The notes below the pieces were generated by a model that was not told where the DNA came from, searched no databases, and was given only the letters and a program-made list of their open reading frames with translations. Of a stretch of 64,000 nt of DNA, positions 5,548 through 9,171 are shown one piece after another. Both the position numbers and the translations under genes were made by a program. The stretch's first letter is position 1. Each line of letters begins with the position of its first letter. Origin of the DNA: a virus; the IMG/VR virus record IMGVR_UViG_3300021963_000077, positions 1 through 64,000 of that record, one strand, 5' to 3'.

Positions 5548-5889
5548 TTAACCTGTGTAGCTCTGCACAACGCCGTCTGGAATAATGGCAAATCTACACT
5601 TGCCTCCAGGTTCAACTTGGGTTTGCAAAATCTTGCATTCCGAACCGCCTTCATATAGAACACAGTTCGCACACTTAACACCAATTTTGGCAACTTCATT
5701 ATCTTCTGGCTTGTCATACCCAGCCCAGACTCCCTTGTAGTCTTCATTGAATTTGCCGTGACGCTTTGTGATGCGGATCAGGGCATATGCGAGCTCTTTC
5801 TCGTCCTCACTCAAGGTGTAGTCGCTGTTTTTAGCTATGTGAACATGCCCACCATTTAAGAGCATTTCTATCAATTTCATTTTGTCCAT
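5548..5889 (-). CDS. small cysteine-rich protein of unknown function
   Basis: The 113-residue product has a C-terminal Cys cluster (KCANCVLYEGGSEC, then GGKCRFAIIP) resembling the small CxxC...C...C modules that recur in phage proteins and recall high-potential iron-sulfur sites. Whether it binds iron-sulfur or zinc cannot be told from the sequence. AGGA lies just upstream of the ATG at 5889. The gene follows the thermonuclease gene with a 5-nt gap, so both are in one minus-strand unit. Confidence 0.65.
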   Translation of the reverse strand: MDKMKLIEMLLNGGHVHIAKNSDYTLSEDEKELAYALIRITKRHGKFNEDYKGVWAGYDKPEDNEVAKIGVKCANCVLYEGGSECKILQTQVEPGGKCRFAIIPDGVVQSYTG

Positions 5890-5894
5890 GATTC

Positions 5895-6308
5895 CTACTT
5901 TGTTTTGAATTCAGCCCAAGTCTTATCGCCTACGCCATAGTACTCACGAGCATAGCCAGACTGGATGATGTCCTTATTTAGGCATGCCGTTGTTTGCGCG
6001 TCAACTTCGTCTGATGAGTAGATACGTGCGAGTATGCGACCGTACTTATCATTCTTGTCTGGGATCGTGTTGATGTATACCCACTTGTGGTTTGTAAGCC
6101 AATCCTCGGTAAACTTCTTTGCCTTCAGGCCAAGCTCTTTCTCAGCTGCATCCTTAGTCCGAGACTCTGGAGTATTGACGCCGTATAGGCGCACCCTGAT
6201 CTTGTGATGGATGTTGAACCCAAGGTCAATCATCAGGTCAATTGTGTCGCCATCAATTACCTTTAAAACGGTTGCTCCATACCAAAAACGTTCACTCATA
6301 AGATCCAT
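5895..6308 (-). CDS. staphylococcal-nuclease-like thermonuclease
   Basis: The 137-residue protein matches the SNase fold: VIDGDTIDL (calcium-binding Asp), RVRLYGVNTPE (catalytic Arg and Glu) and DKYGRILARI (second catalytic Arg). It should cut DNA and RNA in a calcium-dependent way. No signal peptide is visible, so it probably acts in the cytoplasm, for host DNA breakdown or DNA processing. An alternative start is Met4. Confidence 0.85.
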   Translation of the reverse strand: MDLMSERFWYGATVLKVIDGDTIDLMIDLGFNIHHKIRVRLYGVNTPESRTKDAAEKELGLKAKKFTEDWLTNHKWVYINTIPDKNDKYGRILARIYSSDEVDAQTTACLNKDIIQSGYAREYYGVGDKTWAEFKTK

Positions 6309-6641: not shown

Positions 6642-7001
6642 TTAACGCTTAAACCACGCAAGCATGCGCTGACGTAGAGTCTTTTGCGCAACGTCCTGAA
6701 CACGCACCACAGTTGAGTCAACAGCATTCAACACAGACTCGGCAATTTGGTATGCAGTCTGGTTTGCGGTTGTGGTTATGTTGACCGGTGTAGGCGTGTA
6801 GGCAAATGTTATTTCTAGATCTGCCGTGTTAGCTGTGCTCGACTTTGGTTTCGCAGGCAACTTCTTTGCAGCTTGCTTCTTTGGTTGAGCCTTCTTAACT
6901 GCTGCCTTCTTTGCAGGCTGCTTCTTTGCAGTCTTTGCAGGCGACTTCTTAGCTGCCTGCTTTTTAGCTGGTTGTTTCTTTGCTGGTTTCTTGTTTGCCA
7001 T
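6642..7001 (-). CDS. histone H1-like lysine/alanine-rich protein
   Basis: The first 50 residues are made of KKPAKKQ/AAKK-type repeats, as in histone H1 C-terminal tails and bacterial H1-like proteins. The remaining 70 residues form a mixed domain ending in a basic QRMLAWFKR tail. Such proteins bind DNA non-specifically and may compact phage DNA or act on the host nucleoid. TATTGT lies 7 nt before the ATG and there is no Shine-Dalgarno, so the mRNA may be leaderless. The repeats at the DNA level are imperfect. Confidence 0.72.
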   Translation of the reverse strand: MANKKPAKKQPAKKQAAKKSPAKTAKKQPAKKAAVKKAQPKKQAAKKLPAKPKSSTANTADLEITFAYTPTPVNITTTANQTAYQIAESVLNAVDSTVVRVQDVAQKTLRQRMLAWFKR

Positions 7002-7061: not shown

Positions 7062-7694
7062 ATGGATATATACCCAACAACTCTTGACAAGCTGGCACTG
7101 GTAGTAACTGCCAGCACCATGGCTAAAGAGCAGTCAGTAAAGGAGTACGGCGTTGGGGAGGATCTCCCATTCAATGTCTATGGTTGGAGAAACCATAGGC
7201 TTGCAATAATGTGCCAAATTGATTCAGGGCTAATGAATATTGACCCTATGGAAAGATTTACAAAGCTTGCTAATGCGGCCTGCATTATGCGAAAGGGTTT
7301 CTGCGTAGATGGCTTCACATTGCTTGCAGAAGGATTTGTGAGTACTGACCCAGAGAATACGAAGGACAAGAAGCTAGCTGAGGCATACCTAGAGAAGGAC
7401 TCGCCAGTCAAAGAGTGCTTGACATTTACGCATGTTGACAATGGTCGCGTAACCTTTGTAACGAAGCCGTACATGTACACCGTTCCAAGAGGAGTTGAGT
7501 GGGAAGAAGAGATGCACTTCCCTGGTGGAACAATGTTTCGCTCAAAAGACGGAGCTATACCGATCATGTTTGACAAAGTTCTTGCACTTGAAACAGCAGA
7601 AGAACCAGAGGACGAAGAAGAATACGAGGAGTATCACGAAGCTCTCGGCCAAGGCCTACTTGCTGAAGGCTTCTATGCGCAATGGTTCGTGTAG
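7062..7694 (+). CDS. hypothetical protein, 210 aa
   Basis: I do not recognise this soluble protein; the C-terminal part is acidic (AEEPEDEEEYEEYHEALG). TAATTT at 7050-7055 lies exactly 6 nt before the ATG, compatible with a leaderless start, although the -35 box is weak. It is followed by the structured intergenic element at 7704. Confidence 0.72.
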   Translation: MDIYPTTLDKLALVVTASTMAKEQSVKEYGVGEDLPFNVYGWRNHRLAIMCQIDSGLMNIDPMERFTKLANAACIMRKGFCVDGFTLLAEGFVSTDPENTKDKKLAEAYLEKDSPVKECLTFTHVDNGRVTFVTKPYMYTVPRGVEWEEEMHFPGGTMFRSKDGAIPIMFDKVLALETAEEPEDEEEYEEYHEALGQGLLAEGFYAQWFV

Positions 7695-7703
7695 TATTGT
7701 CAG

Positions 7704-7817
7704 GACTGACTAGCCCTTTCCTTTCGGGGTGATGGGTGGCCTGCGCCTCAACAGTTTTAGTGGTTTCTGTTGCGCCGTTATTGAGGTAGTTGTTTCCTCA
7801 AAGGCCACCCGTCAGTC
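7704..7817 (+). ncRNA. candidate structured RNA, possibly a switch
   Basis: The gap between 7694 and the tRNA at 7870 holds nested perfect inverted repeats. P1 pairs GACTGAC (7704-7710) with GTCAGTC (7811-7817). P3 pairs GGGTGGCCT (7734-7742) with AGGCCACCC (7802-7810). The 3' arms of P1 and P3 are contiguous and could stack. A CCC/GGG hairpin fills 7713-7728. Inside P3, TTGAGG (7781-7786) can pair either with CCTCAA at 7746-7751 or with an identical CCTCAA at 7796-7801, giving two exclusive folds. CAG/CTG closes a further hairpin (7752-7769). No ORF fits. Function and transcribed strand are unknown. Confidence 0.5.
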
Positions 7818-7869
7818 GCCTATGCCACCCTTTGATGAATGACGTAAAGCTGTTAACGTATAACCATAA

Positions 7870-7950
7870 GGGCGAGTGGCGAAATTTGGCATACGCGCTA
7901 GGTTTAGGTCCTAGTTCCTCGGAGTGTGGGTTCGAGTCCCACCTCGCCCA
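7870..7950 (+). tRNA. tRNA-Leu (anticodon TAG)
   Basis: The acceptor stem GGGCGAG pairs with CTCGCCC, followed by discriminator A. The anticodon arm CTAGG-TTTAGGT-CCTAG exposes TAG. A variable arm is present, as expected for leucine, and the T-arm is GTGGG-TTCGAGT-CCCAC. CCA is not encoded. Confidence 0.95.
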
Positions 7951-7955
7951 CTTAT

Positions 7956-8745: not shown

Positions 8746-9171
8746 TCAGGGCTTCATTGGCACATTGGGATCCTTGAGTTTCAGCGTAAGGTCACTGACA
8801 AGTTGACCCCATGGGATCCACAGCGTGTAGTCGTAACATTCAAGATCCTCAGGAAAGAATGGCGACGAGAAGTCTTCTGGACATACCGTAAGGGCTTCTT
8901 TTGATAACGACTCAATAGCAACCCCAAACACTACGCATTCTTTAAACGCGTCAAAAGATGGAATGCTGTACTTCTTGTCTGTCGTTGTCACAACTTCATC
9001 CATACCCTTCCACCTCTTGCCACCCGTAAGGGCTATGAAGCCTGCTGAGTGAAATGGATTAGTAGTCAGGTGAATCAGGCCTTGCTCATTCGGCGCAATG
9101 CCTTCCTTCCTTATGCGCTCTGCATAATCTGGAAAAGTTGCGTGATACAGAATCTCAATGGTCTTTGGCAT
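8746..9171 (-). CDS. possible ADP-ribosyltransferase/Tpt1-fold-like protein
   Basis: The 141-residue protein begins ILYHATFPDYAERIRKEGI and continues GLIHLTTNPFHSAGFIA. The YHAT...EGI...GLIHLTT pattern recalls ADP-ribosyltransferase-like and tRNA 2'-phosphotransferase-like folds that bind NAD. The similarity is by eye and short, so function is tentative: the protein could modify host proteins or RNA. A -10 TAGTAT lies exactly 6 nt before the ATG. Confidence 0.55.
   Translation of the reverse strand: MPKTIEILYHATFPDYAERIRKEGIAPNEQGLIHLTTNPFHSAGFIALTGGKRWKGMDEVVTTTDKKYSIPSFDAFKECVVFGVAIESLSKEALTVCPEDFSSPFFPEDLECYDYTLWIPWGQLVSDLTLKLKDPNVPMKP

What the first reader, a model, noticed from the sequence alone, without database searches (positions are those of the whole stretch)
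7704..7817. Candidate structured RNA with two exclusive pairings
Perfect stems of 7 and 9 bp (7704-7710/7811-7817 and 7734-7742/7802-7810) enclose TTGAGG that can pair with either of two identical CCTCAA segments (7746-7751, 7796-7801). Contiguous 3' arms suggest coaxial stacking. Such a switch between alternative folds upstream of tRNA genes could be a riboswitch-like or regulatory RNA.
Basis: seen in the sequence. Interest (0 to 1): 0.72.

Follow-up and report, generated by a model that had tools for sequence, protein, structure and literature searches.

The report
Conserved phage structured RNA, not switch
A freshwater bacteriophage carries a 114-base folded RNA-like element, kept almost unchanged between related phages whose neighbouring genes have diverged strongly; it is probably a small stable RNA of the phage, but nothing supports it being a two-state switch.

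Summary
The window is an 89.5-kb IMG/VR phage record. The element recurs in three other contigs: two with the same element sequence (L002/L003) and one more distant (L004). Between window and L004, third codon positions in neighbouring genes are only 46-57% identical, yet 75 of 75 element bases outside two hairpins (H0, H2) are identical. The variable hairpins keep most pairing: a paired insertion and U-G to U-A in H0, changes on both strands of H2. Shuffles fold less well (z = -4.3). It is a real, constrained element, best read as RNA.

The switch fails: the alternative pairing costs 5.3-12 kcal/mol and keeps 6, 5 and 4 of 6 pairs. The tRNA/riboswitch context fails: L004 has no tRNA downstream. 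What is constant is the position 9 nt after one gene's stop codon. In relatives that slot holds tRNA-Ile(UAU) or a different structured RNA sharing a UUUCCUUUC loop. No Rfam family or GenBank phage matches. Best reading: a new phage small RNA, comparable in setting to T4 RNAC/RNAD; its mechanism is inferred, not shown.

The parts
7704..7817 (+). whole structured element
   Evidence: fold z = -4.3; 75/75 bases outside H0 and H2 identical to L004, although third codon positions nearby are 46-57% identical
7704..7710 (+). stem A, 5' arm (pairs with 7811-7817)
   Evidence: invariant in 3 distinct sequences
7811..7817 (+). stem A, 3' arm, directly adjacent to stem B
7713..7730 (+). hairpin H0: stem 7713-7717/7726-7730, loop UUCCUUUC 7718-7725
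   Evidence: L004 has one extra base on each strand (GCCCTT/GGGGGT, 6 bp), L002 has U-A in place of U-G
7734..7742 (+). stem B, 5' arm (pairs with 7802-7810)
   Evidence: invariant
7802..7810 (+). stem B, 3' arm
   Evidence: invariant
7743..7775 (+). hairpin H1: GCG/CGC + CAACAG/CTGTTG with a CCT bulge, loop UUUUAGUGGUUU
Evidence: fold; fully invariant in all copies.
7781..7801 (+). hairpin H2: TTGAGG 7781-7786 / CCTCAA 7796-7801, loop UAGUUGUUU
   Evidence: pair probability 0.95; in L004 replaced by AAGGA/UCCUU
7062..7694 (+). upstream gene (210 aa, no known family); its stop codon lies 9 nt before stem A in every copy
7870..7951 (+). tRNA-Leu(UAG) downstream; context only, absent in L004

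Best explanation
The element is a small structured RNA encoded by the phage, about 114-117 nt. It is probably transcribed with the upstream gene and trimmed or left as a stable 3'-end RNA. Stems A and B stack into a 16-bp rod, off which hairpins H0, H1 and H2 project. It would act in trans through its exposed, sequence-conserved loops. The pyrimidine loop UUCCUUUC of H0 resembles the 3' tail of 16S rRNA, so it could mask purine-rich ribosome-binding sites. The U/G-rich loops of H1 and H2 could be protein-binding sites. Shown: real element, constrained sequence, one preferred predicted fold conserved in relatives, fixed position behind one gene. Inferred: transcription as a discrete RNA, coaxial stacking, trans action, and the loop as a seed.
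For: Window versus L143/L004: element core 75/75 identical while third codon positions are 0.46, 0.47 and 0.57 identical in three neighbouring genes, and 7818-7869 is 0.45. H0 and H2 vary but mostly keep their pairing. The same fold is predicted in all three distinct sequences, z = -3.8 to -4.3. G-U pairs (G7713-U7730, U7717-G7726, and a G-U in H2 of L002) fit the plus strand as RNA. Not coding: the ORF from the ATG at 7732 has no synonymous change in its first 16 codons and is frameshifted by 2 nt in L004 (read). A hairpin with a UUUCCUUUC loop lies at the same locus in other clades. One such clade (G2) shares two exact 9-mers and a 7-mer in the same order; at least two shared 9-mers occurred in 0.25% of shuffles.
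Against: Only three distinct sequences are known, so covariation is thin: two pairs change on both sides, and column shuffles match that in 112 of 500 trials. A recent exchange of this short segment between the phages could also make it look unusually conserved. No promoter, terminator or transcript is shown. Most phage genes have no GAAAGG-type ribosome-binding site. The one good candidate target, the start of the gene at 8746-9171 (-), loses complementarity in L142, and no other phage site has more than 11 nt of perfect complementarity.
Confidence: 0.5

Rival explanations
1. A cis-acting 3'-end element of the upstream gene's mRNA: an RNA structure that ends or protects the transcript, with no function in trans.
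For: Always 9 nt after the same gene's stop codon. In L004 a promoter-like TTGACT-17-TAGGGT sequence follows it (read by eye). Relatives also have strong hairpins there, in G2 in front of an oppositely directed ORF.
Against: No U-tract and no terminator-like site found at the element. Loops and unpaired bases are as conserved as the stems, which a simple terminator or end-protector does not need.
Confidence: 0.25
2. One reading: TTGAGG alternates between CCTCAA 7746-7751 and CCTCAA 7796-7801, controlling the tRNA-Leu gene downstream, like a riboswitch.
For: Both CCTCAA copies are present, and tRNA-Leu follows in the window and in L002/L003.
Against: The alternative costs 5.3-12.2 kcal/mol and is broken in L004. 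L004 has no tRNA downstream. No Rfam riboswitch matches even at E = 10.
Confidence: 0.03
3. A DNA element (replication, recombination or packaging site) whose inverted repeats act as double-stranded or cruciform DNA.
For: Extreme base-level conservation including loops; L187/L189 carry a hairpin with the same loop in the opposite orientation.
Against: G-U (T-G in DNA) pairs are kept in H0, including a paired insertion that adds another one in L004. The position directly behind a stop codon fits an RNA better, and there is a single copy per record.
Confidence: 0.15
4. A tRNA-derived or tRNA-like RNA: 7-bp acceptor-like stem, U8-A9, a D-arm-like H0, and an unpaired R-C-C after the stem, in a locus that holds tRNA-Ile(UAU) in relatives.
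For: The locus holds tRNA-Ile(UAU) in many relatives. The bases after stem A are RCC in all copies. T4 rnaC, a stable RNA beside the T4 tRNA genes, has a T-arm-like hairpin in its fold.
Against: No T-arm or anticodon arm. ARAGORN and the Rfam tRNA model do not see it, even at E up to 10.
Confidence: 0.07

Closest known systems
T4 RNAC and RNAD (species 1 and 2 RNA)
   Same: Phage-encoded small RNAs (139 and 119 nt) next to tRNA genes, function unknown (PMC3014915, PMC9697503).
   Different: No covariance-model similarity. rnaC has a tRNA-like T-arm in its fold, which this element lacks. T4 infects E. coli, whereas this phage probably infects an actinobacterium.
SD-masking small RNAs with C/U-rich loops (RsaE/RoxS-type, from own knowledge)
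   Same: An exposed UCCUUUC-type loop that could pair with ribosome-binding sites.
   Different: No target shown here. Those RNAs are chromosomal in Firmicutes, and no Rfam match was found.
G2 structured RNA at the same locus in related phages (found here)
   Same: Same upstream gene, about 117 nt, loop UUUCCUUUC, two shared 9-mers and one 7-mer in the same order.
   Different: Different layout: three abutting hairpins closed by a short stem. Models R1 and R2 do not find each other's RNA.

Membership tests
Any Rfam 15 family | covariance-model match | tested here: not met
   No match over 7704-7817, at gathering scores or at E up to 10
Riboswitch / two-state switch | two mutually exclusive, comparably stable, conserved pairings | tested here: not met
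   Alternative costs 5.3-12.2 kcal/mol; loses pairs in L002 and L004
Riboswitch / two-state switch | conserved downstream regulated gene | tested here: not met
   tRNA-Leu follows in the window and L002/L003; in L004 no tRNA follows and the downstream sequence is different
Intrinsic terminator | GC-rich hairpin followed by a U-tract | tested here: not met
   No terminator-like site at the element; 7818 onwards reads GCCTATGCC
tRNA / tRNA-like | cloverleaf with anticodon and T arms | tested here: not met
   no T-arm consensus in the sequence
T4 RNAC/RNAD | sequence or structure homology | tested here: not met
   R1 with filters off on the T4 tRNA region gives only chance scores, best 8.2 bits and outside rnaC/rnaD
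Phage-encoded small RNA (functional class) | discrete stable transcript | not testable with these tools
   needs RNA-seq or a Northern blot
Phage-encoded small RNA (functional class) | non-coding sequence and fold under selection | tested here: met
   strong for sequence and fold stability; covariation alone is inconclusive with three sequences

The most novel reading that the evidence does not exclude
A previously undescribed RNA family of freshwater phages, in a 'slot' behind one conserved phage gene that has been filled repeatedly by tRNA-Ile(UAU) or by different structured RNAs. The structured RNAs share a UUUCCUUUC hairpin loop that copies the anti-Shine-Dalgarno tail of 16S rRNA, so the phage would use an RNA mimic of the ribosome's own mRNA-recognition tail to steer translation.
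Probability: 0.12. Interest if true: 0.75.

Novelty: new member of a known kind. Interest (0 to 1): 0.42.

Why it matters
Some phage small RNAs, such as T4 RNAC and RNAD, still have no known role (PMC3014915, PMC9697503). This is a well-delimited new candidate with strong evidence of selection, and a second conserved RNA at the same locus in related phages (G2) gives an independent set of sequences. The shared UUUCCUUUC loop gives a concrete, testable hypothesis about how such RNAs could act on translation.

Tried and rejected
Rfam at gathering scores and at E up to 10: nothing on the element, and only a chance hit on the G2 RNA. blastn in GenBank phages and plasmids: only short chance pieces. 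R1 on loci or records of about 75 related phages: no further copies. Coding hypothesis: rejected, frameshift and no synonymous change. Antisense target in the phage: the best, the start of gene 8746-9171, does not co-vary in L142, and nothing else exceeds 11 nt. Self-cleaving ribozymes and packaging RNA: no Rfam match.

Full report
What is there. The window is the first 64 kb of an 89.5-kb IMG/VR virus record, a tailed phage with portal, terminase, major head protein, a primase/helicase and ribonucleotide reductase and ten tRNA genes. Its primase/helicase is closest, among GenBank phages, to those of Arthrobacter phages at about 30% identity, so an actinobacterial host is likely but not shown. 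'Freshwater' is likewise an inference, not a tool result. The full fold is: stem A (7 bp), hairpin H0, stem B (9 bp), and inside B hairpins H1 and H2. A and B have contiguous 3' arms and should stack. The element folds far better than shuffles (z = -4.3, 0 of 200).

Constraint. The upstream gene (7062-7694) led to three contigs with the element: L002, L003 and L004. L002 and L003 carry the same element sequence and L004 is more distant. Between the window and the L004 contig, third codon positions are 0.46, 0.47 and 0.57 identical in three neighbouring genes, and the bases after the element are 0.45 identical. All 75 element bases outside H0 and H2 are identical. H0 and H2 differ but mostly remain paired. 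H0 gains one base on each strand in L004, and U-G becomes U-A in L002. H2 changes on both strands in L004, and in L002 gains a G-U and one C-A mismatch. Formal covariation is weak because there are only three distinct sequences; the case rests on the contrast in conservation. A reading frame starting at 7732 is not the reason: no synonymous change in 16 codons and a 2-nt frameshift in L004 (read).

The switch. TTGAGG pairs with the nearer CCTCAA (H2) with mean probability 0.95, and with the other copy 0.0002. Forcing the alternative costs 5.3, 5.7 and 12.2 kcal/mol in the three sequences, and it keeps 6, 5 and 4 of 6 pairs. The second CCTCAA lies inside H1, which never varies. The switch is therefore not supported.

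The context. In L004 no tRNA follows, so the tRNA neighbourhood is not part of the element. What is constant is the position 9 nt behind the stop codon of one gene of unknown function. Homologues of that gene were found in 123 IMG/VR stretches, 80 of which were kept. Behind it, many relatives have tRNA-Ile(UAU) on either strand. One clade (G2: L144-L148, L168-L182) has another conserved structured RNA, in which three pairs have changes on both sides. L187 and L189 have a 13-bp hairpin on the opposite strand. Among all loci held (2.7 Mb), the five distinct hairpins with at least 7 bp and a TTTCCTTTC loop all lie at this locus, in G2 and L187; H0 of the window has nearly the same loop on a 5-bp stem. 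The held loci are enriched for this locus, so this is suggestive only. G2 and the window element also share two 9-mers and a 7-mer in the same order; two or more shared 9-mers occurred in 0.25% of shuffles. Covariance models R1 and R2 do not detect each other's RNA, so distant homology is possible but not shown.

Function. The best reading is a small phage RNA acting through its loops. The H0 loop contains UCCUUUC, which equals part of the 16S rRNA tail (CCUCCUUUCU; from own knowledge) and suggests masking of ribosome-binding sites. But few phage genes have such sites, and the one candidate target is not conserved, so the target, if any, may be in the host. A cis-acting 3'-end role is the main rival.

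Known relatives. Nothing in Rfam, GenBank phages or plasmids matches. The nearest known kind is T4 RNAC/RNAD: small stable RNAs beside the T4 tRNA genes whose roles are unknown (PMC3014915; PMC9697503; PMC12685909). Model R1 finds no likeness to them.

Noticed in passing
L169:5672-5788 (+), and L168, L170, L173, L175, L176 at the same place: A second conserved structured RNA (three abutting hairpins, two with 10-12 bp stems, some compensated changes) behind the homologue of the 7062-7694 gene in related phages; no Rfam match.
   Followed up: partly
L192, L194, L198-L200, L202-L206, L214, L216, L220, L225, L227-L229, just after the homologue of gene 7062-7694: tRNA-Ile(UAU) gene in the same slot, on either strand depending on the phage.
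   Followed up: partly
L187/L189, about 5630-5670, - strand: A 13-bp hairpin with loop AATTTCCTTTCCTTTCG at the same locus but in the opposite orientation.
   Followed up: partly
window 6642-7001 (-): A 119-aa protein with a long Lys/Ala/Pro-rich repeat (KKPAKKQPAKKQAAKK...), like the tail of a histone H1-like or nucleoid protein.
   Followed up: no
window 5895-6308 (-): Staphylococcal-nuclease-like protein (Pfam PF00565, E = 3.5e-14).
   Followed up: no
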